Shown here piece by piece: positions 30,149 through 43,966 of a DNA stretch of 64,000 bases (the first letter of the stretch is position 1; each line of letters begins with the position of its first letter). The DNA is from Methanoplanus sp. FWC-SCC4 (GTDB taxonomy: Archaea; Halobacteriota; Methanomicrobia; Methanomicrobiales; Methanomicrobiaceae). The translations under genes were made by a program, and so were the position numbers. The DNA is taken from contig NZ_CP043875.1 in the NCBI RefSeq assembly GCF_032878975.1, positions 1,728,370-1,792,369 on the forward strand, read 5' to 3'. Below the pieces are notes generated by a model that saw nothing but the letters and a program-made list of their open reading frames with translations, was not told the DNA's origin and did not search any database.

Positions 30149-30203
30149 TGCGAGGGGAGGGAGTCGAACCCGCGAACACCTGCGTGAGTGGATCTTGAGT
30201 CCA
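30149..30203 (-). pseudogene. 3' half of a tRNA-Leu(CAA) gene, cut by the integrated element
   Basis: Read on the reverse strand: anticodon loop CTCAAGA with its 3' stem, a variable arm (CAC/GTG), a T arm (GTTCGA loop), an acceptor 3' strand CCCTCGC and discriminator A. The sequence upstream in tRNA orientation is not a tRNA 5' half. The matching 5' half (acceptor GCGAGGG) lies at 47830-47871. The T stem shows one C-T mismatch, which may reflect decay after loss of function. Confidence 0.85.
30190..30203. mobile_element. Left attachment core (attL) of the virus-like element
   Basis: The 14 bp GGATCTTGAGTCCA are repeated exactly at 47830-47843. They correspond to the anticodon stem-loop of tRNA-Leu(CAA), a known target position for tyrosine recombinases. 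The integrase gene begins 36 bp further in. Confidence 0.85.
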
Positions 30204-30207
30204 AAAC

Positions 30208-30216
30208 ATATTATAA
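30208..30216 (+). promoter_or_regulatory. TATA box of the integrase gene
   Basis: ATATTATAA centred about 28 bp before ATG 30240 and only 5 bp from the attachment core. No Shine-Dalgarno site is present, so a nearly leaderless message is likely. Because the box lies inside the element it is kept in both integrated and excised forms. Confidence 0.5.
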
Positions 30217-30239
30217 CGAGTAGACCCAATTTAAAAAAT

Positions 30240-31376
30240 ATGGTTCAGCAAATTGATATTTCACGGATGAAAATAAGCGATATCAATAAAGAATATCTAA
30301 AATCCTTTGAAAGGAACCTGAAACTAAAAGGACGAAAACAAACCACAATAAGATCCCATCTGATCCGGACATCACAATTTTTGAAACAAACAGATGATTA
30401 TAAAGAAATCTCTAAAGAAGAGATCGAAGATTATTATTTGACAATATCAAAGGAGAAAAGCACCCATACGGTATGGGGTGAGATTCTCAGCCTTAAATTA
30501 CTGGCAAAACACATTATGCCGGAACGAACAGAAGAACTATTCAGAGATTTAAAACCCAAAAAGCCTCGGAATGGCAGAAAGGAAATGCCACAATGGGAAG
30601 ATATCAAAATAATTCTTGAATATGAATCAAATCCTCGTGATAAAGCGGTCATTATGCTGTTATGGGATTCAGGGTTAAGAATTTCAGAACTTACAGCCCT
30701 TACAATCGGAGACATAACCTATCTTGAGGATTCTGCTGTTGTGCATGTGAGGGATGGGAAAACAGGTCCGAGAGATGTTCCTATTATTGATTCTCTCCCC
30801 TATATTCAACGGTGGATAGAATACCACAATTTTAAGGATGATCTTAAATCTCCCCTTTTCAATACAACACGCCTTAAAGGAAATGCCAGGGTTCAGGTGA
30901 ATGAACCTTTAAGCTCCAAAGCTATTGAAACCAAACTTAAACATCTTCAAAAAGTATCAGGCATTAAAAACCCTGTCAACCCCCACGCAATACGGAAGGC
31001 AGCTGCAACCCGGTTAGCCCAACTTTTCATTAATGCTGAACTTGAGGTCCTTATGGGATGGGTTCCGGGTTCTCAGGTTGCCAACCAGTATTATATCAGA
31101 GTCAGTCCGGACACACTGTTGAAGAAAAAAAGAGCAGCAGCAGGTATTGAGGAACCCGAAGAGCAGGAACAAACAGACCAGCCCCGGAAATGTCCTCGTT
31201 GCAGAACCCTAAACGCCTTTGATGCTGTCAGGTGTTCATACTGTAATTTGATATTAGATCCCAGACTCGCAGTCGAACTAAAACATAAAGAAGATGATTT
31301 ACAAAAGAAAATTGAAAAACTCCTTAACATTGAATCAGTCATGGAAGAATACATAAAAGAAATAAAAAAACCTTAA
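30240..31376 (+). CDS. Tyrosine integrase of the virus-like element
   Basis: A 378-residue recombinase. N-terminal core-binding domain about residues 10-90. Catalytic residues: Arg in 'WDSGLRISELTAL', HxxR in 'PHAIRKAAATRL', Tyr nucleophile in 'ANQYYIRVSPD'. A CxxC...CxxC ribbon ('CPRCRTLNAFDAVRCSYC') and a coiled coil end the protein, as in the integrase at 21961. It should insert the element into the tRNA-Leu anticodon loop. The frame is open from a TTG at 30195 inside the attachment core; ATG 30240 is preferred because of the TATA box. Confidence 0.9.
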   Translation: MVQQIDISRMKISDINKEYLKSFERNLKLKGRKQTTIRSHLIRTSQFLKQTDDYKEISKEEIEDYYLTISKEKSTHTVWGEILSLKLLAKHIMPERTEELFRDLKPKKPRNGRKEMPQWEDIKIILEYESNPRDKAVIMLLWDSGLRISELTALTIGDITYLEDSAVVHVRDGKTGPRDVPIIDSLPYIQRWIEYHNFKDDLKSPLFNTTRLKGNARVQVNEPLSSKAIETKLKHLQKVSGIKNPVNPHAIRKAAATRLAQLFINAELEVLMGWVPGSQVANQYYIRVSPDTLLKKKRAAAGIEEPEEQEQTDQPRKCPRCRTLNAFDAVRCSYCNLILDPRLAVELKHKEDDLQKKIEKLLNIESVMEEYIKEIKKP

Positions 31377-31395: not shown

Positions 31396-32349
31396 CTACA
31401 TACCAAAAATCGTTCTAAAAAATACCACTACCTGATTTATGATATCTTTATTTTCCCCTTCTGCTTTTTCAATATATGAAGGCATTTCTGTTTGATTTGC
31501 GGTCGATATTGGGTAATTCGTAGTAGTTACTTCAGTTGTAGGTTTTAAAGATGCAGTCGGTTCAGTCATCGATTTTGTGACTTCCGGCGTTACATTTTGT
31601 AACATTTCTTCAGGGGTGCTTTCCGGGATTATCTCTTCTGTTGCCTCAGTTGTAGATTGTTGAGTTAAAACTGGTGTTGGTGTCTCTGTAGGAACCGGGT
31701 TTATCATAAACATCCCTTTAGAATAGGTATCATCAATACTGGGTTTATTAATGTAATTAACAATAATGTCACAAAGCTTTTCTCCGGTTATGCTACCAGA
31801 AATAGAATAGCTGTCTCCTTCTGATGTTTTTATCTGATTGTTATAATACCAAACATCATAATCAGCAGAATAATAAGGATGCTGTATTAAATAGCGATAA
31901 ATCCCACTTTCAAGATTATCATTAATATAAAATTTATATCTAAAAGAACCATCATTCTGAATCTTTAAAATAACCGGAGAACCGGAATCACCAACATAAC
32001 CCGGTTTAATTTTTCCGGTCGGTGAAAATATCCATAACATATTATTAGTAGTGCTTCCACCGTCAGAAGTTCCCCAAATTTCAATAGTTTCCCCGTAATT
32101 GACATTTGCAGTATTATCATCTGTCGAAAGAGTTGTCCTGACTGATGCAGTATGAAGATTTTGCCCTGAATAATAAGATTCTTCAGTCTCATTTAATGAT
32201 AATTTCATTCTTTGGTAATCATCTACATCAAGCGCCCCATCTTCAAATAAATCTTTTAAACTACCCAATGTAACATAGCCGCTTTCAGCGTTTGCACCAG
32301 ACACCAAGAAAAGCATAACTAAAAAACAAAAAATAAGTTTAATCCTCAA
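31396..32349 (-). CDS. Secreted protein with SHOCT-like motif and Thr/Pro-rich stalk
   Basis: A 317-residue protein. The signal peptide ends at 'SGANA'. Residues about 27-52 form a SHOCT-like short helix pair ('LKDLFEDGALDVDDYQRM'). A beta-rich domain (about 65-205), a Thr/Pro/Glu-rich stalk (about 220-285) and a C-terminal amphipathic helix ('IINQVVVFFRTIFGM') follow. The late-operon protein at 41479 has the same plan. Convergent with the integrase and in the same orientation as the RHH gene behind it. Could be a surface or superinfection-exclusion protein; unproven. Confidence 0.7.
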   Translation of the reverse strand: MRIKLIFCFLVMLFLVSGANAESGYVTLGSLKDLFEDGALDVDDYQRMKLSLNETEESYYSGQNLHTASVRTTLSTDDNTANVNYGETIEIWGTSDGGSTTNNMLWIFSPTGKIKPGYVGDSGSPVILKIQNDGSFRYKFYINDNLESGIYRYLIQHPYYSADYDVWYYNNQIKTSEGDSYSISGSITGEKLCDIIVNYINKPSIDDTYSKGMFMINPVPTETPTPVLTQQSTTEATEEIIPESTPEEMLQNVTPEVTKSMTEPTASLKPTTEVTTTNYPISTANQTEMPSYIEKAEGENKDIINQVVVFFRTIFGM

Positions 32350-32370
32350 TTCTAACCATCCCCTAAAAAA

Positions 32371-32661
32371 TTATTTTTTAATTTCCAAATTTTGCAGAAT
32401 TTTTGTAATAACTGCTAAATCTTTCTTTATTTCTTTCAAATCCTCCTCATGCTTTTGTAGCATTTTCCTTTCATCATCTGTCATAGATTCAATTTTTTCT
32501 TCATGATCAGATTGTAAATTATTGAAATAATCTTTGCAAATTTTTACAATAACCTTACTTGCAGAATCTTCATTTAATCGGTTTTTTTCAGACTCTAAAA
32601 GAGAAAGTTCAGACTTTGTAAAGTAAACAGCTATACGATTATTGCGTTTTTCAGGAGGCAT
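32371..32661 (-). CDS. Ribbon-helix-helix regulator with coiled-coil tail
   Basis: A 96-residue protein. Its start ('NRIAVYFTKSELSLLESEKNRLN') fits an RHH DNA-binding domain, followed by a Glu/Lys-rich helical tail suited to multimerisation. It reads away from a divergent promoter region that contains four copies of one 15-bp site (32669-32760), the expected operators. Likely controls early genes or the choice between dormancy and replication. Confidence 0.7.
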   Translation of the reverse strand: MPPEKRNNRIAVYFTKSELSLLESEKNRLNEDSASKVIVKICKDYFNNLQSDHEEKIESMTDDERKMLQKHEEDLKEIKKDLAVITKILQNLEIKK

Positions 32662-32668
32662 TGAATAA

Positions 32669-32760
32669 CATAATTTAGCATAAATAAATAATAGTTCTGA
32701 TGTGCTAAATTATGCCAAATTAGCACAAATTATATAAGCATTAATTGTGCTATATTATGC
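32669..32760. promoter_or_regulatory. Four-copy operator array in the divergent early promoter
   Basis: A TGTGCTAAATTATGC-type site occurs at 32701-32715 and 32746-32760 (TGTGCTATATTATGC). It occurs in the opposite direction at 32669-32683 (cataatttagcataa) and, shorter, at 32717-32727 (AAATTAGCACA). The last copy ends one base before ATG 32762, so bound protein would block that gene. An AATTATATAAGC TATA-like element lies between copies. The RHH protein encoded at 32371 is the obvious candidate ligand. Confidence 0.7.
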
Positions 32761-32761
32761 T

Positions 32762-32953
32762 ATGTCAGAAAAAGACATAGTCATTAGATTATCAGGAACT
32801 ATAAACCCTGAAAAAGAACCGGAACTGGCAGAAGCTACCAAAGAGCTTCTGAAAATTTACAATGTGAGCAACCTATCAAAAGAAGGAATACGCTGTCTTG
32901 CACGCCGCGAGGGCCTTTTACCCAGTATCGTTAAGGGGAGTGCACCAGCGTGA
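32762..32953 (+). CDS. Small protein, first gene of the early operon
   Basis: A 63-residue hydrophilic protein, start ATG 32762 directly behind the operator array (a frame from 32747 would run through the operator). It ends in overlap with the next gene. Helical second half 'LSKEGIRCLARREGLLPS'; no family recognised. Confidence 0.55.
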   Translation: MSEKDIVIRLSGTINPEKEPELAEATKELLKIYNVSNLSKEGIRCLARREGLLPSIVKGSAPA

Positions 32954-33159
32954 GTTCTATAAATGCCGGAAATTCACAGCCCTGTTTTGTATCAATTCTA
33001 ACACCAGAACAGATACAAAACATGCAGGAAACCGCAGGAACACCAGATAAATTATTGGATGATCTCTCTTTCACATCACGTAAGATGGTTATTGCTGTCA
33101 GGCATGTTCTCGACAAAATGAACATTCAATGGAGAAGTGAAGAATGTCAGATAACTTAA
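32950..33159 (+). CDS. Small hypothetical protein, early operon
   Basis: A 69-residue protein starting at GTG 32950, which overlaps the previous stop (GTGA). It overlaps the next gene by 16 bp. Mostly helical; no motif recognised. Reality is supported by the overlap chain rather than by homology. Confidence 0.5.
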   Translation: MSSINAGNSQPCFVSILTPEQIQNMQETAGTPDKLLDDLSFTSRKMVIAVRHVLDKMNIQWRSEECQIT

Positions 33160-33356
33160 AGAAAAAACAAAATGTCAGCCTTAAAGTTTCCACAGCCGCC
33201 AAGCACAAGGAACAAAGGACTGACGATATAATTGACGCGGATAAGACATATAAAACTTTGTCCTATTCGACAATGGATGTTGCCGGTAAATCGCTCTTTT
33301 ATAGGACGGCTGCATGCAGGCCGGCTAATGAAGATATGATACGGGGGTGCTGCTGA
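33144..33356 (+). CDS. Small basic hypothetical protein, early operon
   Basis: A 70-residue protein with a basic N-terminal half. It overlaps the previous gene and its stop abuts the next ATG at 33357. A gaagtga sequence upstream could serve as ribosome-binding site. Function unknown. Confidence 0.5.
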   Translation: MSDNLKKKQNVSLKVSTAAKHKEQRTDDIIDADKTYKTLSYSTMDVAGKSLFYRTAACRPANEDMIRGCC

Positions 33357-33578
33357 ATGGCAGACTCCGAAATAAAAAAATGGAACCGGAAGAAAGCTCT
33401 GGCAAAACAGGCAAAAGAAACCAAAAAAAATACAGTCCCGATCATAATCCCTAAAGATGTTACATACCGTCAGGATCAGATTAAAACTATTCTTAAAAAA
33501 TCCGGTGTTCGTGCACCCTGGAATCTCCCTGTAAGAGAACTCTACGCTGTAAGAGCAATCCGCCTGGGGGCGATCTGA
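33357..33578 (+). CDS. Small basic hypothetical protein, early operon
   Basis: A 73-residue, Lys/Arg-rich protein, possibly nucleic-acid binding. It starts immediately after the previous stop, and its TGA overlaps the ATG of the next gene (TGATG). No family recognised. Confidence 0.5.
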   Translation: MADSEIKKWNRKKALAKQAKETKKNTVPIIIPKDVTYRQDQIKTILKKSGVRAPWNLPVRELYAVRAIRLGAI

Positions 33579-33958
33579 TGAGCGGTATCACGTCTGGTCT
33601 GACTGCACTGCATGACAACCGGCAGAACTGGAAAACAAAATTTCTGTCAGAATTGATCGAAACCCTGCATAAATGGGAATTTGCCGAATCAATTTTTGTA
33701 TATCAGATCTGGAAAAGTTCTTGTGGTGATTACTACTGCCGTCATTACAGCGAAAATGATAAGCACAGGCATATTTATGCCGTTCATCAGGATCACCGGC
33801 CGGTAAACCACCTTATACCCGACATCACAGACATAGCCAACAAATACAATGCTGTTCTCTTAGACTTTTACAAACCGCAGAACATTCCAGATCGGTATTC
33901 AATCCGGGCATATCGATATGATACCGGCTATTTTGCATTATCCATAAATCAGGAGTAA
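33578..33958 (+). CDS. Hypothetical protein upstream of Rep
   Basis: A 126-residue soluble protein. It contains paired histidines ('CRHYSENDKHRHIYAVHQDHRP'), which might bind metal, but no known motif is clear. It overlaps the previous gene and ends 5 bp before the TTG start of the Rep gene, so it is in the replication operon. Confidence 0.55.
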   Translation: MSGITSGLTALHDNRQNWKTKFLSELIETLHKWEFAESIFVYQIWKSSCGDYYCRHYSENDKHRHIYAVHQDHRPVNHLIPDITDIANKYNAVLLDFYKPQNIPDRYSIRAYRYDTGYFALSINQE

Positions 33959-33963
33959 GGGCT

Positions 33964-35760
33964 TTGTCACTCAAAAAGATAGCCGACAGGCTCTATACTA
34001 CTGCAAGTGATGAAAATATTCAAAAGTATCCATCACTTCTTAATGAAGACTATCTAACGCTCTCACAGTTCGTATTCACACGGTCAGATGGTGTATCAAT
34101 AGATCTCTGGCCTCTCTTCTTACGTGATGTCAATATAGGGATTATAGCAGAGACCATAAGAATTGAAAGATATGCAAAACATCAGCAGTGTATTGAGAAG
34201 CCCAAAAATGAAAAGAAAGGCACACAGCGCCCCAGTGCAGAATACTTCAGATTATATCGCTTTATTAAAAAGCTCGAAGGTAAGGAATATCTTAAATCTC
34301 AAAAAGGCGTTTTAGACCTAGGTTTTGGTGATCGCCCGTCAATTTGGTATAGGCTTACTAAAACCGGGTATAACTTGACCCTGCAGGTGCAAAACTCAAA
34401 CCGTTTTGCAAAGAGGGTTAATTCCTCTCAGATTGATAAACAAAGGAACCAAACGCCAGAGAACCAAAAAGAGATACCGCAATGGATGAGATGGCCGAAT
34501 AAAACGAATCCTCTCCGCATTTGCGCAATCAAAAAAATGAACTCTCTGCCAACAAGCACCGGCCTTTTCTGGAATACCCGGGAACATGGCGGGTCATTAA
34601 ATCCCGAACTTGTCAGGCAGCTTAACAAAATAGATTCTGATTATTGCGATTATCTTCATGAAATCGAAGACAAAAAAATTATTCTCACTCCCCGGGATGA
34701 TCCTGATTCAACATATCACACGCTCGATTATGTCACTCGTTTTAACTGCAATTCCCGGAAATATGCTAACCTCGATACATTCCGGGACAAGTGGAAAGAG
34801 GCAGAAGAATATTACGAATCAGGTATTTTTGTTACACTCACAACAGACCCAAAACTATTCCCTAATCTCTGGATGGCTAACCGGCACATGGCTGTAGCGT
34901 GGAATGCTTATTTATCCCTGATTACACGCCGCCGGAAGACTGCATTAAAAAAACACTTTTATCAAAAATATGCTCTTGACAAATACGGTTCACCAGATAG
35001 CCGATTAACCCGGGAAGAAAAAGCAAAGGCAAGAGAACATTACGAAGAACAAATAGAAACCCTCTCATTCAGACCCCGATATGTTGCAGTTAATGAATTC
35101 CAGAAAAACGGTTTAATCCACGTTCACGCGGTATTTTTTGACATCGACAATTTAGACGAATATCAGTTAAGCAAAGACTGGAACCGGTTAGGTCAGGGAC
35201 GTATTGTAGATGTCTGCAAAATTCAGAAATCAGGCCCGGATTCATGGAAATGGAAAAACGGAAAACCAAATGATGCCGGGCAGATAGAAGATCCAAGAAA
35301 ATACCTGAAAAAATACCTTAACAAAATCATCTACAAAAACGAAGGATATCATTTATACTGGTCAATTAACAAGAAATTTTTCCTTTGTTCTCAAAGGATG
35401 CAACCCGAAAAACTCACACCTGAAATGATAAAAGCCAGGGCACAATACCGGCGGGAACTTGCAAGAGTGAAAGCCGAGATCGGCCCTGGGGCATATTGGA
35501 CTTTTGCCGGTTGCCTGCCTTCCGGGCTAATCCCTGATTTTATCAGCCAAAGAGCAGAGAAGAAAAAATACTATCCAGTGCCGGAATATGTCATTCCGAT
35601 ATCGGCCGGGCCGGTAAAAGACCTTCAGGAAATGAAGAGATCTTCCCCGGTCAAAGAGAAACCGCCGGACTTTGTATCTGCTGCTCAACTCTATCGTGAC
35701 ATGCAGCAGGCAGCCGCCACACCGACAACGGGAGGAATGAGCATAGCCGACTTCATGTAG
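33964..35760 (+). CDS. rep: HUH-type rolling-circle replication initiator (Rep)
   Basis: A 598-residue protein starting at TTG 33964 behind a weak site. It shows the three rolling-circle Rep motifs in order: motif I 'FVTLTTDP' (about residue 288), motif II 'GLIHVHAVFF' (HVH metal site, about 385), and motif III 'KYLKKYLNK' (YxxKY type with nicking Tyr, about 445). The ~270-residue N-terminal part is helical and may bind the origin. Such proteins nick the double-strand origin and form a 5'-phosphotyrosine. It implies single-stranded or rolling-circle intermediates for the excised element. The gene ends in a terminator hairpin. Confidence 0.85.
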   Translation: MSLKKIADRLYTTASDENIQKYPSLLNEDYLTLSQFVFTRSDGVSIDLWPLFLRDVNIGIIAETIRIERYAKHQQCIEKPKNEKKGTQRPSAEYFRLYRFIKKLEGKEYLKSQKGVLDLGFGDRPSIWYRLTKTGYNLTLQVQNSNRFAKRVNSSQIDKQRNQTPENQKEIPQWMRWPNKTNPLRICAIKKMNSLPTSTGLFWNTREHGGSLNPELVRQLNKIDSDYCDYLHEIEDKKIILTPRDDPDSTYHTLDYVTRFNCNSRKYANLDTFRDKWKEAEEYYESGIFVTLTTDPKLFPNLWMANRHMAVAWNAYLSLITRRRKTALKKHFYQKYALDKYGSPDSRLTREEKAKAREHYEEQIETLSFRPRYVAVNEFQKNGLIHVHAVFFDIDNLDEYQLSKDWNRLGQGRIVDVCKIQKSGPDSWKWKNGKPNDAGQIEDPRKYLKKYLNKIIYKNEGYHLYWSINKKFFLCSQRMQPEKLTPEMIKARAQYRRELARVKAEIGPGAYWTFAGCLPSGLIPDFISQRAEKKKYYPVPEYVIPISAGPVKDLQEMKRSSPVKEKPPDFVSAAQLYRDMQQAAATPTTGGMSIADFM

Positions 35761-35772
35761 TCGGCTTTTTTT
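35745..35772 (+). terminator. Hairpin and T-run at the Rep stop codon
   Basis: AGCCGAC (35745-35751), an 8-nt loop, GTCGGCT (35760-35766), then a T-run. The perfect 7-bp stem includes the last codons of rep and its TAG. It should end transcription of the early/rep operon before the next gene set at 35800. Confidence 0.75.
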
Positions 35773-35799
35773 GAATTTGAATAAAGGAGAGTTTAAGAA

Positions 35800-36018
35800 A
35801 TGTTAGGAAATTTAAAAGAATTTGAAGTATGGGAAGGAGATCATTACAAATTGGTAAAATCCTTTGATACAGTAACTGAAGCAAAAAGAGAATCTAACCG
35901 GTTAAACCAGATCCACAACAGGGATTATTTTGTTCGTAAAAATGATCCTGATGGATCTAAAAAGACATGCGTTGGCCCAAAAGGCCGTGACGGGTTGTAT
36001 ATTATGGAGGATGAATAA
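35800..36018 (+). CDS. Small hypothetical protein after Rep
   Basis: A 72-residue charged protein with a good ribosome-binding site (aaggagag) upstream of ATG 35800. It begins a new run of closely spaced genes after the Rep terminator. The pattern 'EVWEGDHYKLVKSFDTVTEAKRE' looks like a compact alpha/beta fold; no family name. Confidence 0.6.
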   Translation: MLGNLKEFEVWEGDHYKLVKSFDTVTEAKRESNRLNQIHNRDYFVRKNDPDGSKKTCVGPKGRDGLYIMEDE

Positions 36019-36020
36019 TC

Positions 36021-36548
36021 ATGGATTCAATCCTAATGTCAATAAAACCGGAATATGTAAGAAAAATAGAATCCGGTTTAAAATTATATGAATTTAGGAG
36101 AGTAATATTTACAGAAATTTCAATTCCTAAATTTACAACATATCTTAAAGGAAAACCGCATTACACCTATAATTCTAACGCAAAACCTGTTATCATTTAT
36201 GTTTATGAATCTTCCCCGGTTCAGGCTGTAACAGGCTGTATTCAATGCGAAGAGGTGATCGCAAATTCCCCTAAAAAATTATGGGAATTATTTTCAAACC
36301 ATGCAGGGATTTCAGAGAAGGATTTCTTTAATTATTTCAAGTTCAAAAAAGGCAGATATCCCGCAATTAATACAATAGATATAGGATTTGCTCTTAAGAT
36401 AAAAGATTATCAAGTATTCAAAAATCCTATTTATTTAAAAGATATTTATGTCGACCGTGCCCCCCAAAATTTCCAATATTTACGCCATTATCAGAGGGAA
36501 GAACTGAATGACATTCTTTCAAAAGCTGAACAGGGGGAACAACTATGA
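36021..36548 (+). CDS. ASCH/PUA-like domain protein
   Basis: A 175-residue protein. The start 'ILMSIKPEYVRKIESGLKLYEFRR' is the typical ASCH opening (a ligand-loop Lys followed by a YExRR strand). ASCH domains are PUA-like folds that bind RNA or modified nucleotides. In a virus it could recognise modified bases or interfere with host RNA processes; the methyltransferase at 37389 in the same gene run is notable. It overlaps the next gene by 4 bp. Confidence 0.7.
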   Translation: MDSILMSIKPEYVRKIESGLKLYEFRRVIFTEISIPKFTTYLKGKPHYTYNSNAKPVIIYVYESSPVQAVTGCIQCEEVIANSPKKLWELFSNHAGISEKDFFNYFKFKKGRYPAINTIDIGFALKIKDYQVFKNPIYLKDIYVDRAPQNFQYLRHYQREELNDILSKAEQGEQL

Positions 36549-36808
36549 CAGAAAATTATGGCGTATGGGATGCTATGGACTGTTATTTTGAATGGTTCAA
36601 AACCCCGGAAGAAGCTGAAAAATATCTTAATACCATTCTGGAAGAATACCGGAAAGAAGGCGAATGCCCTGAAGAACTGGAAGATTTTTTCATCTTTGAA
36701 AAAACTCATGAGCTTATTTTAGGGGATTATCTCATTGAAAACGAAGAGATAACAAGCATTGATCTAAAAATCTCCAAAATTAAAAAGGAGACTGAATACG
36801 GGGTGTAA
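36545..36808 (+). CDS. Small acidic protein
   Basis: An 87-residue, strongly acidic protein (ATGA overlap with the ASCH gene). Small acidic virus proteins are often DNA mimics such as anti-restriction or anti-CRISPR factors. That is only suggested by composition and by position in an early-type gene run. Confidence 0.55.
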   Translation: MTENYGVWDAMDCYFEWFKTPEEAEKYLNTILEEYRKEGECPEELEDFFIFEKTHELILGDYLIENEEITSIDLKISKIKKETEYGV

Positions 36809-36810
36809 TC

Positions 36811-37098
36811 ATGTTAAATATTACTAATGATCTTAAACTGCCCGGAAATCTTCAGGGTATCAAATTTGATTATATGATAAGTCTGATGGAATATGCCTTT
36901 ATATTCAGTCCTTTCATGGCAGAACTCTTTCTTTTCAAATTTATAACTGATATTTCCAACTTACAACTAAACGGGATCAGCATAATTGAAATACAGGAAT
37001 TAGAGCATCAGACATTCTTAACCGGAATTTTTGATCAGATAGACCAAGGACAGAATTATATCAGACAGAAATATTATTCAATGGAGGTCGCACAATGA
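36811..37098 (+). CDS. Hypothetical protein
   Basis: A 95-residue protein with a central hydrophobic stretch ('YAFIFSPFMAELFLFKF'), possibly membrane-associated. It starts 2 bp after the previous stop and overlaps the next gene by 4 bp. No family recognised. Confidence 0.5.
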   Translation: MLNITNDLKLPGNLQGIKFDYMISLMEYAFIFSPFMAELFLFKFITDISNLQLNGISIIEIQELEHQTFLTGIFDQIDQGQNYIRQKYYSMEVAQ

Positions 37099-37376
37099 TC
37101 GCCCTCTTAGCACTTTTACAAACTCCTGCGATGCTGTTAGGTATTATAGGCGCTGTTCTCACCGTCAGTCACACAAGAACACACAGAAAAGCAGGTTATT
37201 GTTCCTGGGTAATAGGAAATACACTCTGGTTTATTTCGGGCATTTTTACGGGCAATATAAACCTGATAATACAGTTTGGTTTCTTCGCTCTTCTGGCCGT
37301 TCAGGGTATCAGCATAAACAGAGAATCTCGAAAGAATATGGATCCCCCGCATTGCGGAATTGTCAATTTAACATAG
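37095..37376 (+). CDS. Small three-helix membrane protein, homologue of the one at 36-347
   Basis: A 93-residue protein with three hydrophobic segments. The middle ('AGYCSWVIGNTLWFISGIFT') parallels 'AGFLCWIFGNLIWILEGAFT' in the protein at 36-347. Overlaps the previous gene; a ggagga site follows its stop for the methyltransferase. Function unknown; the fold could be of the small PnuC/SemiSWEET-like kind, which I cannot confirm. Confidence 0.6.
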   Translation: MIALLALLQTPAMLLGIIGAVLTVSHTRTHRKAGYCSWVIGNTLWFISGIFTGNINLIIQFGFFALLAVQGISINRESRKNMDPPHCGIVNLT

Positions 37377-37388
37377 GAGGACAAGGTC

Positions 37389-38327
37389 ATGATTGAAAAA
37401 GAGCAGGTCTGTGAACTCTTCTGCGGCGCCGGCGGAATGGGTCTCGGGTTCTCCAGATTCTTTGATATCTCCTATGCTGTAGATTTCAAAAAGCAGGCTG
37501 TAGAGACTTACCAAAGTAACCATTTTGAAACCCAGGTCAGGCAGCAGGACGTCAGGGATATAACCGGCTGCTATCATGACTTTGACGGTCTTACCGGAGT
37601 AATCGGAGGGCCTCCATGCCAAGGCAGCAGCATCATGAATACAAAACGCTGTGCAGACGATCCCCGCAATGCCCTGATGTTTGAATACATGCGGTTAGTC
37701 GATGAGATCCGGCCGAGATTCTACGTTATGGAAAACGTCCCGGGAGTCTCCAAAAAAATAAAAGAAGATGTCATAAAGCTTGGAAAAATGGCAGGCTATG
37801 ACGTAAAATCAATCTATCTCAATGCTGCCGAATACGGAGCAGCACAAACCCGGAAGAGGTGGATTGTTGTAGGAACTCGCGGGAAGAGTTGGCATATGCC
37901 CGGGACGCAACCGGCAAAAACTGTCAGGGAAGCATTCTCTGATATAAATGAGAATTGGGGTTTAATGCAGTCCTCAGAAAAGACTCTGAACAACCTGAAA
38001 AATTCAACGTCTATGGAATGGACTCCAATGACGAAAGGAGGGAAGTTTAAACATTTAATCCGGCTTGATTTTGAAAAGCCATCTCCTGCAGTTGTCAATG
38101 TAAAAAAAGTGTATATGGTCCATCCTACAGAAGACCGCAATATCTCATTAGCAGAGGCCGCAGCCCTGCAGGGATTCCCGCCCGGGTATCAGTGGAAAGG
38201 AACAGAATCAGAGATAGCACAAATGATCGCTAATGCCATGCCTGCAGAGCTTGCAGCATCTATTGCGGGCTCATTCTCAACACATCAGGCAACTGTTCAG
38301 ACCGAATTAATCAGAGGTATAACATGA
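37389..38327 (+). CDS. DNA (cytosine-5) methyltransferase of the virus-like element
   Basis: A compact 312-residue C5 methyltransferase: motif I 'ELFCGAGGMGLGF', IV 'GGPPCQGSS' with catalytic Cys, VI 'MENVPG', VIII 'AQTRKRWIVVG', IX 'LAEAAALQGFP', X 'IANAMPAELA'. No endonuclease partner lies beside it, so it is an orphan, probably self-protection against host restriction. It is not a close copy of the 470-residue enzyme at 4584 by length or motif detail. A ggagga site precedes ATG 37389. Confidence 0.92.
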   Translation: MIEKEQVCELFCGAGGMGLGFSRFFDISYAVDFKKQAVETYQSNHFETQVRQQDVRDITGCYHDFDGLTGVIGGPPCQGSSIMNTKRCADDPRNALMFEYMRLVDEIRPRFYVMENVPGVSKKIKEDVIKLGKMAGYDVKSIYLNAAEYGAAQTRKRWIVVGTRGKSWHMPGTQPAKTVREAFSDINENWGLMQSSEKTLNNLKNSTSMEWTPMTKGGKFKHLIRLDFEKPSPAVVNVKKVYMVHPTEDRNISLAEAAALQGFPPGYQWKGTESEIAQMIANAMPAELAASIAGSFSTHQATVQTELIRGIT

Positions 38328-38367
38328 CAAACACGACATTGTCGTTATACACTAAGAGGTGAATGAA

Positions 38368-38568
38368 ATGAAGGAATTTACTAAAGACGAAAATGAAATT
38401 ATCTGGAATTTAGTAGGGGATGAAATTAAAAGAATTTCAGACAATTTCTACAAAATAGAGAAATTTGAAGAAATTAAAGAAAAATTGTCTCAATTAAAAG
38501 ACATAGAAAGCAAAGCAGGATCAAACATGCAACATCATTCCATCATTAGCCAGGAGGAAAAAAGATGA
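38368..38568 (+). CDS. Small charged helical protein
   Basis: A 66-residue Glu/Lys-rich protein. ATG 38368 follows aggtga; the stop overlaps the next ATG as ATGA. No family recognised. Confidence 0.5.
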   Translation: MKEFTKDENEIIWNLVGDEIKRISDNFYKIEKFEEIKEKLSQLKDIESKAGSNMQHHSIISQEEKR

Positions 38569-38729
38569 AATGTGAAAATTGCGGGGCATCTCCTGCAGAA
38601 CTCACCCCTATTGAAGTTACAGGGGGTAAAGAAATTGAAATGGGATTATGTGAGGCATGCATTGAAGATCTAAATACATACGGAGAGTTCACGCATGGCA
38701 AATATATGGACTGGTCTCAAGGGGAGTGA
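38565..38729 (+). CDS. Small two-CxxC zinc-finger protein (54 residues)
   Basis: ATG 38565 to TGA 38729. It carries CENC at residues 3-6 and CEAC at 29-32, a four-cysteine zinc site. It follows aggagg and overlaps both neighbours by one to four bases, so translation is coupled. Possibly nucleic-acid binding. Confidence 0.6.
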   Translation: MKCENCGASPAELTPIEVTGGKEIEMGLCEACIEDLNTYGEFTHGKYMDWSQGE

Positions 38730-39016
38730 TGAAGATGATGAAAAAAGTTGATTTAATTTTATTAATTACAGCTATTGCAGCCATTATTGCATTATTGTTT
38801 GGATTGCCATCTATCATCAGTTTAATAACTGATAGCGGATGTGATGATGAGATTTGCCATGATGCATGGAAGGTCGGATATATAGACGGAAGGTTTTCAT
38901 TACCTCCCCATGACGATGTTTTGCCTAAATTCCAAACTTGTTATGATGATGGATATTTAGAAGGCCTAAATAACCCCTATGAGGATGACAACATCAGCCA
39001 GGAGGACAACTCATGA
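38729..39016 (+). CDS. Single-pass membrane protein
   Basis: A 95-residue protein with one strong N-terminal membrane helix (about residues 8-31) followed by an acidic domain with cysteines. ATG 38729 overlaps the previous TGA; GTG 38726 is also possible. Overlaps the next gene (ATGA). Confidence 0.55.
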   Translation: MKMMKKVDLILLITAIAAIIALLFGLPSIISLITDSGCDDEICHDAWKVGYIDGRFSLPPHDDVLPKFQTCYDDGYLEGLNNPYEDDNISQEDNS

Positions 39017-39207
39017 CTCTGTATTTTTGTAATGGAAAAGACATTACAGAAAAGATAAATGCCTGCAAAGGTTGTGATGCTCTTAGAATAGAATTTCAAG
39101 CATGCAATGATTTAAAAGGTTTCATAGATTGTGCGGAGAAATGCCCTCGTGGAAAATGGGAAGTTAAGAGTAACAAGATGAGCCAGGATGGTGATCCTAA
39201 TGATTAA
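39013..39207 (+). CDS. Small cysteine-containing protein
   Basis: A 64-residue protein with six cysteines in loose pairs ('CKGC', 'CNDLKGFIDC', 'C'), perhaps a zinc-binding fold. Overlaps both neighbours. Function unknown. Confidence 0.5.
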   Translation: MTLYFCNGKDITEKINACKGCDALRIEFQACNDLKGFIDCAEKCPRGKWEVKSNKMSQDGDPND

Positions 39208-39547
39208 CAATAATCCAATTATTGATAATGCAATCCTAAAAAAGATAAAAATGCCATTGTCATATTATTGTGAATTTCAGTTTTATGTCTTATATCGGCG
39301 GCTAATATGCTGTAAGACTGGCAAGCATAGATTTGTATTTGTCGAGGAGGATGATCAGAAATTCTGTTCTTTGCAACCCGGAAATTATTATTGTCAGGAT
39401 TGCGGAAAAAAAGCCCCTCCATCAGAAATTTTTGCATATTATAACTCAGGTTCAGACGTTTGGGGAACTGAAGAATATGATGAACTGATGATGAAAAGGG
39501 TTCTGATTAAAGGGGCTTGTAAATTCAGCCAGGAGAAAAACCTATGA
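39200..39547 (+). CDS. Putative zinc-ribbon protein
   Basis: A 115-residue protein with CxxC-type elements ('CCKTGKHRF', 'YYCQDCGKK'). ATG 39200 lies behind ggtgat; ATG 39188 is an in-frame alternative. It overlaps the following gene by 4 bp. No family name. Confidence 0.5.
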   Translation: MINNNPIIDNAILKKIKMPLSYYCEFQFYVLYRRLICCKTGKHRFVFVEEDDQKFCSLQPGNYYCQDCGKKAPPSEIFAYYNSGSDVWGTEEYDELMMKRVLIKGACKFSQEKNL

Positions 39548-39753
39548 GTAGAATGCTCTTTAATTATTTGGTATATATCTACGACAAATTAGGTGATTTT
39601 CTTGAAAAAATTGCTGAAAAAATGTGTGAATATATGATAAAAGGAATATTCCTGCCTTTAATATTCATTATAACAATGCCTGAAAAAATAAAAGAGAGAG
39701 TCGCAAAAGCTCGCGAAGAAAACGAATTAATATTTGCTAATGATGTGAGGTGA
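39544..39753 (+). CDS. Small membrane-associated protein
   Basis: A 69-residue protein with one hydrophobic helix ('YMIKGIFLPLIFIITMP') between charged helices. ATG overlaps the previous stop (ATGA). Function unknown. Confidence 0.5.
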   Translation: MSRMLFNYLVYIYDKLGDFLEKIAEKMCEYMIKGIFLPLIFIITMPEKIKERVAKAREENELIFANDVR

Positions 39754-39758
39754 TATCA

Positions 39759-39956
39759 ATGTATGAAGTTCTAAATTTACCCGGTTTTCTGCAATCAAAA
39801 GAAGCAGATTATAAAAAACATTCCGAGTTTATCAGAAAATTTTCTGAAAGGCTGCATTATGAGCTTGGGGCACTCCTTCAATATGTTTCCATATATTCTT
39901 ACATTCTTTCGATCATGTTTCAGTTAAAAATCATGGGAGCTAACAAAAATGATTGA
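39759..39956 (+). CDS. Small hypothetical protein, last gene of this run
   Basis: A 65-residue protein with a hydrophobic, aromatic-rich second half. ATG 39759 follows aggtgat; a GTG at 39750 is in frame. It ends facing the reverse-strand RHH gene at 39974, so the run stops here. Confidence 0.5.
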   Translation: MYEVLNLPGFLQSKEADYKKHSEFIRKFSERLHYELGALLQYVSIYSYILSIMFQLKIMGANKND

Positions 39957-39973
39957 AATAAAAAATGACAATA

Positions 39974-40267
39974 TCAAAATCCTTTCATCATCCCTTTACT
40001 TTGCAACATATCTGACAATGACAGATTAATAACATCAGACATATCCAAAGGCCGAACCCGGGCCCCGTCAGGTTCAAGAGCGACCAGGAGAACTGGCACA
40101 CCGTATATATTACAGAACCGTTGCACGGAAATATTCATAGTATCGCTTTTTTCAAGCTTCTGTTCACTGAATATATCCAAAAACTCTTTTTCAATCCGGA
40201 CGGAAGAAGAGACTCTATTCTTCTTTTCAATTCCTAAAATTCTACTGAGGGCGGCTGTTGGTTGCAA
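39974..40267 (-). CDS. Ribbon-helix-helix-like regulator controlling the late operon
   Basis: About 97 residues from a TTG start at 40265-40267. I chose this over the open frame to 40378 because a perfect GGAGG lies 9 bp upstream and because the extra residues would be encoded by the operator-like region. 'NRVSSSVRIEKEFLDIFSEQKLEKSDTMNISVQRF' spans an RHH-like fold (about residues 20-52). It is divergent from the coat gene across a region with two palindromes (40311-40324, 40358-40372). Likely represses or activates virion genes. Confidence 0.6.
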   Translation of the reverse strand: MQPTAALSRILGIEKKNRVSSSVRIEKEFLDIFSEQKLEKSDTMNISVQRFCNIYGVPVLLVALEPDGARVRPLDMSDVINLSLSDMLQSKGMMKGF

Positions 40268-40310
40268 AGTTTGGTTCCTCCTATAGTAAGTGAGTACTAA
40301 CAGTATGTGA

Positions 40311-40372
40311 AACCCGTTCGGGTTATATATCGTTATTGCACGAGCTAACATATTAAAGTTACATTGTGTAAC
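40311..40372. promoter_or_regulatory. Late divergent promoter with two palindromes
   Basis: AACCCGTTCGGGTT (40311-40324) is a perfect 6-bp stem with 2-nt loop. GTTACATTGTGTAAC (40358-40372) is a GTTAC-N5-GTAAC site that recurs at 47619-47633. A TTATATATC TATA-like element lies between them at about 40323-40331. The coat gene starts at 40404. These are good operator candidates for the regulator at 39974. Confidence 0.6.
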
Positions 40373-40403
40373 ACTCATTTACATCGATGAGGTGATCTGG
40401 TAG

Positions 40404-40751
40404 TTGTCTAACGATGTAATCGAGATCGGCGGTAAGCTTGAAGACTGGGAACCCGCCAAAGCAGAATCTCGTTTCTCAGTCTTCAAACGCAAACTTGGCT
40501 TAAAAGCCGCAGTAGCAGCAACCGCAGGCGCCGGTCTTGTCGCCTCAGCATCTGCTGAAACAACTGAATCAATCAACTGGACTTCAATCATAGAGATGAT
40601 TAACGGTGCAGCCGGCATATTCCCGTCAATCGGAAATATGGTCATCAACATCGCCCCCGTGCTCATTCTCTTGGGTGTCGTCGGGTTCGTGTTAATGTTC
40701 TTCAATTCCATCCTGGATGCGGTAAGGGGAGCATTCAATATATTCAAATAG
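40404..40751 (+). CDS. Candidate major coat protein (small membrane protein)
   Basis: A 115-residue protein starting at TTG 40404 behind gaggtgat. An unusually long basic N-region (to about residue 33) precedes a signal-like Ala-rich helix ending 'ASASA'. The mature part would be about 63 residues: acidic start, long hydrophobic helix ('IAPVLILLGVVGFVLMFF'), then a short basic end. That is the charge plan of filamentous phage pVIII and of membrane-embedded coat proteins of archaeal viruses. First gene of the late operon, as expected for the most abundant virion protein. Inference from layout only. Confidence 0.55.
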   Translation: MSNDVIEIGGKLEDWEPAKAESRFSVFKRKLGLKAAVAATAGAGLVASASAETTESINWTSIIEMINGAAGIFPSIGNMVINIAPVLILLGVVGFVLMFFNSILDAVRGAFNIFK

Positions 40752-40761
40752 GAGGCAAAAG

Positions 40762-41136
40762 ATGAAATCCACATCAAGCATCCTCCTTTTAACTTTACTA
40801 TTCTCAATGATTCTTTGCCCGGCAGCAATGGCAGCCGAAGACGACATAAAGATCACATTTACGGACCTTGACTTCAACAAAAACACTGAAATCATAGTTT
40901 ATGACGGCACAGGCGAACTTATCAAAGAAACCAACACGTCCGGCACAATCTCGTTAAACTCGTCCTATTCTTACCTTTTCGTATTCAAACCATCTGAGCA
41001 GACATGGTTTCAGAATCCGCTTAACTCACTGGAATTCCTGAGTGTTCAGATGCCAACTTACATCGCATATGCGCTATGGTTCGCGGTAATTTTAGGAAGT
41101 ATCGTAATAGTAGGAAGAATTTTCAAAGTATGGTAA
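40762..41136 (+). CDS. Exported protein with C-terminal membrane anchor
   Basis: A 124-residue protein: signal peptide to 'AAMAA', a small beta-rich extracellular part, and a C-terminal transmembrane helix ('YIAYALWFAVILGSIVIVG') with a basic tail. aggagg precedes ATG 40762. Likely a minor virion membrane protein. Confidence 0.6.
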   Translation: MKSTSSILLLTLLFSMILCPAAMAAEDDIKITFTDLDFNKNTEIIVYDGTGELIKETNTSGTISLNSSYSYLFVFKPSEQTWFQNPLNSLEFLSVQMPTYIAYALWFAVILGSIVIVGRIFKVW

Positions 41137-41150
41137 AAGGAGGCTAAAAA

Positions 41151-41492
41151 ATGTCTGAAACAAAAATAAAACCAAAATATAAAAGTTTTTTCACACGAAA
41201 AAACAAAGAACCGGAAACCGAACAGGAAAAACAAAAAAACGCTGAAGAAATTTGCAAATCTTTTAAAGCCATGGCAGTTTTTTCAGTGATATTCTCTGCA
41301 GTATTTGGACTAAAAGCAATGTACTTTGACTCATCAGACTTGTATGAATTGATAGATAGCACATTTATAACGCTAATGTTCCTTATACTAATGCTATTCT
41401 GTCATTTCTCATATATGTCAGTCAAAACACACTGGATTTTAAGAGAAAAAATCAACAGCTTATCAAAGGGTGAGGGAAATGAAATTCTCTAA
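41151..41492 (+). CDS. Two-helix membrane protein
   Basis: A 113-residue protein with a charged N-terminus and two transmembrane helices (about residues 40-58 and 75-95). aggagg precedes its ATG; it overlaps the next gene by 14 bp. Function unknown, late-operon context. Confidence 0.6.
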   Translation: MSETKIKPKYKSFFTRKNKEPETEQEKQKNAEEICKSFKAMAVFSVIFSAVFGLKAMYFDSSDLYELIDSTFITLMFLILMLFCHFSYMSVKTHWILREKINSLSKGEGNEIL

Positions 41493-42042
41493 ATTTACCT
41501 TCATCAGTTTGTTGTTTTTGTGTATGCTTATAGCAGTCCCGGCAGCAATGGCAGTCGGTAACGAGACAGCAAATACAACCATAAACAGTTCTGAAAAAAA
41601 GCACGGGGAGAGCGGAGAAGTTAATCCTGTGACTCTTGCGAAACTACTATCCGACGGTGTAATTAATGAAGATGATTATAACCGGATGATCGCCACAGTT
41701 GTTGAAAATGAACAGGCAAAACAACAGCAGATCGAAAACACAACCACTCCAACTCCTGACCAAACGGTAACCCCTACAGCAGAACCAACACAGGCAGCTA
41801 CACCGGAACCAACAGAAGAGAGCATCCCGGAGGAGCAGACACAAGAAACACCCGAAGCCGAAACCTTGCCTGAGTCTGAACCCGCAGAAGTGCAGGCCAT
41901 GCAGGTTTTAGAAACAGTATCAGAAGTTCAGGACACGGCGACAGAAACAAAAACAACAAGTGAACCGGCGGAAACCGTAACAGTTGAAAAAGGGCTAATT
42001 GAACAGATAATAGCCGCCTTACAGGGTCTTTTAGGAGTCTGA
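41479..42042 (+). CDS. Secreted SHOCT-like/Pro-Thr stalk protein, partner of the one at 31396
   Basis: A 187-residue protein: signal peptide ending 'AAMA', a SHOCT-like motif ('LAKLLSDGVINEDDYNRM', about residues 53-70), a Pro/Thr/Glu-rich stalk (about 90-165) and a C-terminal amphipathic helix ('LIEQIIAALQGLLGV'). The 317-residue protein at 31396-32349 has the same order plus an inserted beta-rich domain. ATG 41479 follows ggtgagg. Probably a surface or virion component. Confidence 0.65.
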   Translation: MKFSKFTFISLLFLCMLIAVPAAMAVGNETANTTINSSEKKHGESGEVNPVTLAKLLSDGVINEDDYNRMIATVVENEQAKQQQIENTTTPTPDQTVTPTAEPTQAATPEPTEESIPEEQTQETPEAETLPESEPAEVQAMQVLETVSEVQDTATETKTTSEPAETVTVEKGLIEQIIAALQGLLGV

Positions 42043-42046
42043 AAAG

Positions 42047-43966
42047 ATGAAAAAAACCCTGTCCGTTTTTTTACTGCTCTTAATCTGCCTGATCCCCGGA
42101 GTTATGGCTCACGGTTTTGAAAATGATCTGTCTGGGTGGTCTCCGTCATCTGATTTTGCAGATACGGCCAGTGCAAGCGCTCAGGGTTTTATTAACGTAT
42201 TTACAGATGCACACACCGGATCTAAATCCTGTCAGATTACAGCCTATGCAAAAAACAGCCAGTATTACACTGTAACCCTCGAGACAGCAAGCCCGGTAGA
42301 CCTCACCAGTAAATCTACTCTTTCATTCTATCAAAAAACTTATCAGATAATCCAGAACGGCGGAACTGAAAAAGGATGGGTGGAAATTGACGGCACTAAA
42401 GTATGGGAGATGATCAACGGGGCAAATTATGCATCGTGGACTTTAAGAGAAATCGATGTTTCCGGATACACCGGCACACACACGTTAGCATTCAAAACTA
42501 CCGCAGTAGCAACCAGCACATCTGAAGAAAAATACTCCTGGCTGATTGATGATGTAGCACTTGACGGAACATTGATCCCGCCTGCATATGCTCAAAGAAA
42601 ATTTCATGTAACAAGCACAGGTGATAATTCACCCGTAAATGGGGCAACGGTCAGTATTACAGATTCGGGATGGACAAAAACAACAGATAGCAACGGAGAT
42701 ACAACTTATTTTGATGCTCTGGCATCATTACATACATACAGTTATACTGTGTCAAAAACAGGCTTTGAGACAAAAACCGGCAGTTTCACAACAGGATCGG
42801 GAGATAGTGCAACAGTAACAGTATCATTGACCCCATTAACCCCGGTTGACTTCAGTGCATGGAATTATTATAAAGATATTACTTATTCAGGCAGTAGCGA
42901 CACAAACAAGCAGGTAAAAATTATTATTCATAGAGAATCCGGCACAGATTCAACTGCAACTGAACTGGATGGATTAGATCGGGTTTGTCATATTTACATA
43001 GATCCTTCAAAATGCAAAGATGATTATTCAGATATCAGTTTTGCAACTACTGATGATTACATTCTCCCACAATGGAGACAGGACGATTATACGACATCAC
43101 AGGCAGTATTCTGGATAAAACCCGCAAGCTTAACAGGCACTGTAAGAATGTATTATGGAAATGCCGGGGCGGTATTGAGGTCATCGTCATCAATTTTTAT
43201 TGATTATATAGGCCCAACAACCTCTCTGTATACAGGTACATCAGGCACATCATATGATATATCCAACACAATATACGAGGGTTATGTAAAAATTACAAAT
43301 CCGGGTAATATATTGATTGGCAGTTCTGATCTAGGAACTTATATTAGCCCGGCCAATAAAGCAGTAGAATTTGTAATTGATTCATCAAATTTATTTATAT
43401 ATTCCTTTTCATCTCCATCCACGTATACCGGTCAATCAGTATCTCAAAATTATTTTGATGGGCAATATCACCGTTTATCTGCTGTTAATCGTCAAAGTAC
43501 TGTCTCGGGATATGTTGACTCATCAAGAATAGGATCTGAAATTAACACAAATATTGCTACCGGAAATGTGTATCTTTTTGCTACATCATCCACAGGCACT
43601 CCTTCATTTGAGCAGAAATGGGCATTTGTTAGATCAGCAGTTTCGACAACACCCACTGCTGTAATAAGCACCGAACAGACAACAGGTGCAGCAACCCCGA
43701 CACCCACACCAACACCAACGCCTACGCCGACTGAAACCGCAACACCCACACCCACGCCTACACCAACACCCACAGAAACAGCAGTGCCAACACCGACAAC
43801 AACCCCGACCCCGTTACCCTCAATAGAACCGCCATCTTACAGCAGCAGCATTACAACACACCATCAGGCGGCTGAAGCTGCTCTCGAGGAATCATACGAG
43901 ATAATCCCTGCATTTTACATGTTAATGATATTGCTCTTTATGATGGCGGTCTTCAGGAGGAAATAA
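42047..43966 (+). CDS. Spike-like surface protein with DUF2341 domain and C-terminal anchor
   Basis: A 639-residue protein. Signal peptide 1-21; a jelly-roll-like region (about 22-180, 'FENDLSGWS...'); a carboxypeptidase-regulatory-like beta domain (about 185-265); a DUF2341 domain (about 267-370, 'WNYYKDITYSGSSDTNKQV'); a further beta region; a (TP)n-rich stalk (about 548-605) and a C-terminal membrane helix ('FYMLMILLFMMAVFRRK'). This is the architecture of a receptor-binding spike displayed on a membrane virion, or of a cell-surface adhesin. Position between small membrane proteins and the ATPase favours the spike reading. Confidence 0.7.
   Translation: MKKTLSVFLLLLICLIPGVMAHGFENDLSGWSPSSDFADTASASAQGFINVFTDAHTGSKSCQITAYAKNSQYYTVTLETASPVDLTSKSTLSFYQKTYQIIQNGGTEKGWVEIDGTKVWEMINGANYASWTLREIDVSGYTGTHTLAFKTTAVATSTSEEKYSWLIDDVALDGTLIPPAYAQRKFHVTSTGDNSPVNGATVSITDSGWTKTTDSNGDTTYFDALASLHTYSYTVSKTGFETKTGSFTTGSGDSATVTVSLTPLTPVDFSAWNYYKDITYSGSSDTNKQVKIIIHRESGTDSTATELDGLDRVCHIYIDPSKCKDDYSDISFATTDDYILPQWRQDDYTTSQAVFWIKPASLTGTVRMYYGNAGAVLRSSSSIFIDYIGPTTSLYTGTSGTSYDISNTIYEGYVKITNPGNILIGSSDLGTYISPANKAVEFVIDSSNLFIYSFSSPSTYTGQSVSQNYFDGQYHRLSAVNRQSTVSGYVDSSRIGSEINTNIATGNVYLFATSSTGTPSFEQKWAFVRSAVSTTPTAVISTEQTTGAATPTPTPTPTPTPTETATPTPTPTPTPTETAVPTPTTTPTPLPSIEPPSYSSSITTHHQAAEAALEESYEIIPAFYMLMILLFMMAVFRRK

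What the first reader, a model, noticed from the sequence alone, without database searches (positions are those of the whole stretch)
31396..42042. Two secreted proteins of the element share SHOCT-like motif, Pro/Thr stalk and C-terminal amphipathic helix
The products of 31396-32349 and 41479-42042 share an L-x2-L-[FL]-x-DG-x3-x-DDY-x-RM motif right after the signal peptide and similar terminal helices, though one is near the integrase and the other in the late operon. SHOCT motifs are usually cytoplasmic C-terminal tags; here they follow a signal peptide. They may bind each other, one perhaps blocking the other (superinfection exclusion).
Basis: partly seen in the sequence, partly recalled or inferred. 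Interest (0 to 1): 0.5.

Follow-up and report, generated by a model that had tools for sequence, protein, structure and literature searches.

The report
Provirus protein carrying host S-layer domain
A virus integrated in a methane-producing archaeon encodes two secreted proteins built on the same frame, and the one beside a small regulator gene carries a domain related to the host's own surface coat, so it may help block other viruses, though this is untested.

Summary
Proteins A (31396-32349, minus, 317 aa) and B (41479-42042, plus, 187 aa) share a significant 37-residue SHOCT-like helical hairpin near the mature N-terminus, a Pro/Thr stalk and a C-terminal helix. In the host genome the SHOCT model (E<=0.1) and a profile of the C-terminal tail (E<=1) match only these two. 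They look like paralogues or module-swapped relatives. The tail is not specific to them: secreted proteins elsewhere in the order end the same way. A is the only gene behind a small putative regulator gene facing the early genes; in two related elements that place holds unrelated genes (membrane proteins; a GHKL ATPase and others). B is absent from its slot in five related late operons, and a hairpin profile finds no third member in 21 other stretches. Best reading: A is cargo, a surface protein that mimics or masks the S-layer (superinfection exclusion or lysogenic conversion). Direct A-B binding through SHOCT is weakly supported. Expression, location and function are inference.

The parts
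31396..32349 (-). Protein A, 317 aa: signal peptide (1-21, by eye), SHOCT-like hairpin (28-56), S-layer-type domain (64-217), Pro/Thr stalk (about 218-285), C-terminal helix (296-315)
31699..32160 (-). S-layer-type domain of A (residues 64-217), homologous to positions 497-653 of the MEMAR_RS02690 S-layer glycoprotein family
   Evidence: NF041431 E 4.1e-14
32371..32661 (-). Small putative regulator gene (96 aa; read by eye as ribbon-helix-helix, no Pfam hit over cut-off), 21 bases upstream of A and probably co-transcribed
   Evidence: weak homologue at the same place in L076 (26%, E 8.5e-4)
32662..32773 (.). Divergent intergenic region and start of the first early gene, with repeated operator-like motif (TGTGCTAAATTATG, TGTGCTATATTATG and inverted copies)
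32747..32953 (+). First early gene, facing the putative regulator; kept at this place in L074 (58%) and L076 (51%)
41479..42042 (+). Protein B, 187 aa: signal peptide, sequon-bearing spacer (about 27-46), SHOCT-like hairpin (50-87), Pro/Thr/Glu stalk, C-terminal helix (172-185)
30195..31376 (+). Tyrosine recombinase (integrase) of the element
   Evidence: PF00589 E 1.9e-19
40404..47594 (+). Late operon: small membrane protein (candidate coat protein, my label), further membrane proteins, B, DUF2341 adhesin-like protein, ATPase
   Evidence: related late operons in L070, L072, L074, L075, L076
30189..47842 (.). Integrated element, bounded by core GGATCTTGAGTCC in a split tRNA-Leu(CAA) gene

Best explanation
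A and B are relatives built on one secreted frame: signal peptide, SHOCT-like helical hairpin, Pro/Thr stalk, C-terminal helix. B is encoded among the late genes and is probably on or near the virion or its exit site. A is encoded behind a small putative regulator gene, probably expressed while the element is dormant, and inserts an S-layer-type domain into the frame. The most likely action is at the cell surface: A is secreted, held near the membrane by its C-terminal helix, and places its S-layer-like domain in or under the host's coat, where it masks, mimics or disturbs the surface that incoming viruses need (superinfection exclusion, or more widely lysogenic conversion). Shown by sequence: the shared frame, the S-layer homology, the gene order, the exchangeable slot. 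Inferred: expression in the dormant state, surface location, the S-layer as receptor of these viruses, and any effect on infection.
For: Shared frame: 0 of 5000 shuffles; in the host genome PF09851 at E<=0.1 matches only A and B, and the tail profile (built from A, B and the L078 protein) at E<=1 matches only A and B there. The two best non-self hits of an A+B profile in 232 genomes are Pfam-confirmed C-terminal SHOCT domains (L092 E 0.0016, L093 E 0.0275; 32.4 and 34 bits to PF09851). S-layer domain: NF041431 E 4.1e-14 in A; the host's full-length member scores 999.7 bits and lies 8-11 kb beyond the window. Model of A: hairpin 28-36/42-56 and a beta-rich domain with block-mean pLDDT 90-95 from residue 131 to 220. 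Slot: the facing early gene is kept in L074 and L076 (58 and 51%), while the genes behind the small gene differ: a GHKL ATPase (PF02518 E 2e-23) and two unassigned genes in L074, small membrane proteins in L076. Operator-like repeats between the two operons. Literature: an S-layer glycoprotein as likely receptor of HFTV1 and, as cited there, of HRPV-6 (PMC9973310, passages); a small S-layer-like protein proposed to hide the receptor (Hlac_3088; PMC10544981, passages).
Against: No expression, localisation or infection data. A's domain is far from the host's copy (29%) and its branch was too long to place in the tree, so a recent capture from this host is not shown and mimicry may be loose. A lacks the rest of the S-layer protein and its PGF-CTERM end. 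No other provirus found carries A. Neither the window's small gene nor those of L074 and L076 has a regulator family hit, and PADLOC names no defence family for A or for the three genes behind the small gene in L074. Host genes with free-standing S-layer-type domains exist (e.g. L078:16571-17614), so the domain alone does not imply a viral purpose.
Confidence: 0.4

Rival explanations
1. A is lysogenic-conversion cargo with a host benefit (adhesion, coat repair, protection) and no role in excluding viruses.
For: Variable slot with unrelated genes in L074 and L076; S-layer-type domains occur in many host proteins of the order, some of them short.
Against: A shares its whole frame with the late-operon protein B, which a purely host-serving gene would not need.
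Confidence: 0.22
2. Both A and B are virion or egress proteins (surface fibres or spikes), A being an accessory one with an Ig-like part; the place of A next to the small gene is incidental.
For: B lies between membrane and adhesin-like genes of the late operon; a common frame suggests a common location.
Against: A is on the opposite strand from the late operon, 21 bases behind the small gene and 8 kb from the first late gene; five related late operons lack B and no stretch read holds another hairpin protein.
Confidence: 0.18
3. One reading: A and B bind each other through SHOCT or the C-terminal helices, A blocking B of incoming particles.
For: Highly significant shared hairpin with the same helix-turn-helix spacing in two models, B's at low overall confidence.
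Against: SHOCT self-association was tested elsewhere and not seen (PMC3581485); the tail is not pair-specific; no second pair found; no complex could be modelled here.
Confidence: 0.12
4. The hairpins are convergent short amphipathic helices, and A and B are unrelated.
For: Both score below Pfam's cut-off; a similar-looking short motif is seen by eye in the integrase of L074.
Against: 0 of 5000 shuffles; both ends shared by the same two proteins and by no other protein of the host genome at the thresholds used.
Confidence: 0.06

Closest known systems
MEMAR_RS02690 family S-layer glycoprotein (NF041431; host member with DUF3821 and PGF-CTERM)
   Same: One domain, profile positions 497-653, E 4.1e-14
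   Different: A has no hit to DUF3821 or PGF-CTERM and scores 52 bits against a cut-off of 600
SHOCT domain (PF09851)
   Same: L-x2-L ... DG-x-[IL] ... D-D-Y core and helix-turn-helix; best non-self hits of the A+B profile are Pfam-confirmed SHOCTs
   Different: Below cut-off; after a signal peptide and N-terminal rather than C-terminal
Hlac_3088 of Halorubrum lacusprofundi (PMC10544981, passages)
   Same: Small surface protein borne on a mobile element, resembling an S-layer protein, proposed to hide the virus receptor
   Different: Haloarchaeal, with a PGF-type C-terminus, on a transposon; its role is also untested there; SHOCT not mentioned in the passages seen
Secreted protein L078:11816-12553 beside the integrase of a related element (G194)
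   Same: Signal peptide, Pro/Thr stalk and the same C-terminal tail
   Different: Different globular part (read by eye as Ig-like, no Pfam family over cut-off), no SHOCT-like hairpin

Membership tests
SHOCT (PF09851) | Score over Pfam's cut-off (27 bits) | tested here: not met
   13.4 and 12.6 bits
SHOCT (PF09851) | Profile relation to accepted SHOCT domains | tested here: met
   Two best non-self hits of the A+B profile in 232 genomes (E 0.0016, 0.0275) are SHOCT over the cut-off (32.4 and 34 bits); the E-values themselves are weak
SHOCT (PF09851) | Two short helices around a DG turn | tested here: met
   A 28-36/42-56, B 50-58/64-87 in models; pLDDT falls to 46 in residues 51-60 of A; B folded without an alignment
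SHOCT (PF09851) | Predominantly C-terminal position | tested here: not met
   N-terminal here; N-terminal exceptions are in print (PMC3581485, section 12)
EF-hand / dockerin-type calcium loop | EF-hand loop pattern (simplified, recalled) | tested here: not met
   Pattern absent in both segments
MEMAR S-layer glycoprotein (NF041431) | Whole-protein score over 600 bits, DUF3821, PGF-CTERM | tested here: not met
   52 bits; no such hits in A
MEMAR S-layer glycoprotein (NF041431) | Homology over one domain | tested here: met
   E 4.1e-14 over residues 64-217
Superinfection-exclusion surface protein | Secreted, encoded in a dormancy operon | tested here: inconclusive
   Signal peptide by eye and operon position; no regulator family hit; expression unknown
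Superinfection-exclusion surface protein | Blocks infection of the cell | not testable with these tools
   needs infection tests
Named archaeal virus family of the element | Relationship to classified viruses | tested here: inconclusive
   ATPase and the 325-aa late protein: no match in the phage collection; ATPase and candidate coat protein: none confirmed in IMG/VR contigs

The most novel reading that the evidence does not exclude
A provirus has put a piece of its host's S-layer onto the frame of one of its own late surface proteins and makes it while dormant, so that lysogens display a decoy or altered coat that incoming related viruses, which would use the S-layer as receptor, bind or fail to pass.
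Probability: 0.25. Interest if true: 0.75.

Novelty: new variant of a known kind. Interest (0 to 1): 0.5.

Why it matters
In the papers I read, little was known of how archaeal viruses enter and exclude each other at the cell surface. A provirus gene with an S-layer domain names a single gene to delete or express. The shared frame of a cargo-slot protein and a late protein also gives a testable case of a virus reusing one of its own surface parts.

Tried and rejected
Direct relatives: none confirmed in IMG/VR contigs with A, B, the S-layer-domain alignment or the hairpin profile; no match of A or B in phage records or of A in plasmids. B's search of 232 genomes listed 16 matches in 15 genomes at E<=0.01, the own one included; of these I read four loci, L034, L035, L036 and L048, which were Pro/Thr or repeat matches, no relatives; the others were not read. 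A scan of the genome collection with the hairpin profile confirmed nothing (61 pattern matches). EF-hand or dockerin loop: pattern absent. PADLOC: no family for A; for B a weak match over residues 13-148 (PD-T4-6, E 0.0025), taken as compositional. NCBIfam hits of B (best E 3.4e-4 against cut-offs of 150 and more) were likewise taken as stalk matches. Solved structures: no sequence relative for the S-layer-type domain (best E 0.16); the fold search gave GlgE, Ig-like and other beta-sandwich matches with query TM-scores of 0.25 or less in PDB and 0.27 or less in the viral library among those listed. Tree of the domain: A's branch ran to the program's limit, so no origin is claimed. Tail as a pair-specific mark: rejected; the first expression for it was written from the three sequences it then found, so its 3 hits in 1842 ORFs are no independent test. 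The adhesin search gave partly Pro/Thr matches and was not used.
Full report
The observation. The ORFs 31396-32349 (minus, here A, 317 aa, TTG start) and 41479-42042 (plus, here B, 187 aa) are as stated. Their mature N-terminal parts align without gaps over 37 residues (score 68; shuffle mean 20.4, sd 3.7; 0 of 5000 as high). SHOCT is the best Pfam hit of each, below the cut-off. Two further results support a SHOCT relation. In the host genome PF09851 matches only A (E 0.018) and B (E 0.084) at E<=0.1; 30 candidates were scored there. A profile made of A and B alone, searched in 232 genomes, finds apart from itself first the C-terminal ends of an ion channel (E 0.0016) and of a zinc-ribbon protein (E 0.0275), both SHOCT over Pfam's cut-off. 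The remaining matches were weaker (E 0.058 to 0.49), and I did not read most of them. Models show helix-turn-helix with the same spacing in A (28-36, 42-56) and B (50-58, 64-87); B was folded without an alignment and at low confidence overall (mean pLDDT 59.7), A at 69.3.

What was missed. Residues 64-217 of A match the MEMAR_RS02690 S-layer glycoprotein family (E 4.1e-14, positions 497-653 of 819). A full-length member (825 aa, 999.7 bits) lies in the same chromosome, 8-11 kb beyond the window. A search of the order with A found matches in 149 of 232 genomes at E<=1e-4, the own genome counted; the listed matches other than A itself mostly cover residues of this domain. In an alignment of A with 44 of the 80 loci kept from named genomes, G86, G93, W106, G149, Y151, Q156-H157-P158, D165 and D206-D207 are invariant in all 45 rows; the scan that found those loci used a pattern holding QHPM, so the invariance of QHP is partly by construction. 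Identity to the host's copy is only 29% and the tree could not place A, so when and whence the domain came is open.

The element. A 17.6 kb element lies between two copies of GGATCTTGAGTCC at 30189-30201 and 47830-47842. It has an integrase, early genes with a rolling-circle-type Rep (PF23343 E 5.6e-8), and a late operon with small membrane proteins, an adhesin-like protein (DUF2341 E 2.6e-9) and an ATPase named by eye from weak hits. Searching 232 genomes of the order found ATPase relatives in 10 (E<=1e-6) and relatives of the small membrane protein in 6 (E<=0.01), the own genome counted in both. Reading these loci gave related late operons in L070, L072, L074, L075 and L076; L077, L078 and L079 are more distant, and others are remnants or were not read in full.

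Gene order. A follows a 96-aa gene by 21 bases, facing the early genes across 85 bases; operator-like repeats fill that stretch and run into the early gene's start. I read the 96-aa gene as a ribbon-helix-helix regulator by eye; Pfam does not confirm it, nor the genes in its place in L074 and L076, and for the one in L072 gives only an Arc hit below cut-off (E 0.0039). The facing early gene is kept at 58% in L074 and 51% in L076. Behind the small gene, L074 has a GHKL ATPase (PF02518 E 2e-23) and two genes without Pfam family at E<=0.01, with a methyltransferase on the other strand beyond (PADLOC MTase_II E 9e-117); PADLOC names no defence family for the first three. L076 has membrane proteins, one with a Tetraspanin hit exactly at the cut-off. 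L072 has, behind its small gene, three genes, the last a likely lipoprotein by eye. So the place of A looks like a cargo slot. B's slot, between a secreted small protein and the adhesin-like gene, holds no B in L070, L072, L074, L075 or L076; in L070 a run of 100 N lies in the adhesin just after its signal peptide, so an insertion there cannot be fully excluded. A profile of the hairpin finds only A and B in 1842 ORFs from 22 stretches, the window's element included. By BLASTP A's S-layer part also matches the host S-layer protein in L084 and L078:16571-17614.

The tail. The C-terminal 13 residues before the last one to three fit [IL]-x-Q-[IV]-x3-[FL]-x2-[IL]-[FL]-G in A, B and the secreted protein beside the integrase of L078. 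A profile of the three matched 72 of 232 genomes at E<=1, where chance matches are expected, and 12 at E<=0.001, the own and G194 counted. Of 17 loci that I then screened, 11 held an ORF ending in a similar tail; 7 of these begin with a signal-peptide-like stretch by eye, 4 have cut or doubtful starts. It is therefore a tail of secreted proteins of this order, not a mark of the pair; in the host genome itself only A and B matched.

Mechanism. Most likely A acts at the cell surface in the dormant state, by presenting an S-layer-like domain that masks or mimics the coat. An S-layer glycoprotein is the likely receptor of HFTV1 and, as cited there, the S-layer that of HRPV-6 (PMC9973310, passages), and a small S-layer-like protein has been proposed to hide a receptor in a haloarchaeon (PMC10544981, passages). 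The HFTV1 paper itself found no superinfection exclusion for that virus at the attachment step. Nothing here shows expression, location or effect. Direct pairing of A and B is possible, but the published SHOCT self-association test was negative (PMC3581485, abstract and section 12).

Novelty. Eight text searches showed me no paper reporting a provirus-encoded S-layer domain in methanogens; I saw listings, passages of six papers (PMC3581485, PMC9973310, PMC13107129, PMC12934983, PMC10544981, PMC6393860) and, of the first, also the outline with abstract and one section. Most subscription papers are not in that library, so this is a limited statement. I file it as a new variant of a known kind: a mobile-element surface protein that resembles the host coat.

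Noticed in passing
window 30150-30201, 47707-47789, 47830-47871: The element splits the host tRNA-Leu(CAA) gene at the anticodon stem-loop; the halves lie at its two ends, and an intact tRNA-Leu(CAA) lies inside the element. GGACTCAAGATCC occurs exactly only at these three places in the genome, and among six loci scanned ARAGORN finds a CAA tRNA only there (in the two overlapping loci that hold the element's gene), so the provirus may supply the host's only copy; a copy with a more different stem is not excluded.
   Followed up: partly
L233-L235, L237, L239-L243, L246, L247: A C-terminal tail of the type QI-x3-F-x2-[LI]FG at the end of ORFs in 11 of 17 loci screened; NCBIfam gives no sorting-signal hit for A, B or the L078 protein; possibly an undescribed anchoring or sorting tail.
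   Followed up: partly
L074 (G000:C1:838000-857999): A second related element in the same genome with a GHKL ATPase and two unassigned genes in the cargo slot and a methyltransferase beyond.
   Followed up: partly
L070 about 6700-7150 and L076 13414-14919: Two elements of one genome (G120) share the same adhesin N-terminal sequence as far as compared by eye, as if the receptor-binding gene had been swapped or copied.
   Followed up: no
L078 11816-12553: Secreted protein with stalk and the same tail as A and B, beside the integrase and small regulator-like genes (by eye) of a related element.
   Followed up: partly
window 29510-30128: Nucleotidyltransferase-like and HEPN-like gene pair (by eye, not scanned) directly outside the left end of the element.
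   Followed up: no
window 37389-38327: Cytosine DNA methyltransferase in the early region (PADLOC MTase_II E 4.3e-69); its neighbours were not searched for a restriction enzyme.
   Followed up: no
window 28453-28895: Two 134-base direct repeats, 83% alike, in a likely lipoprotein gene read by eye as a double rhodanese.
   Followed up: no
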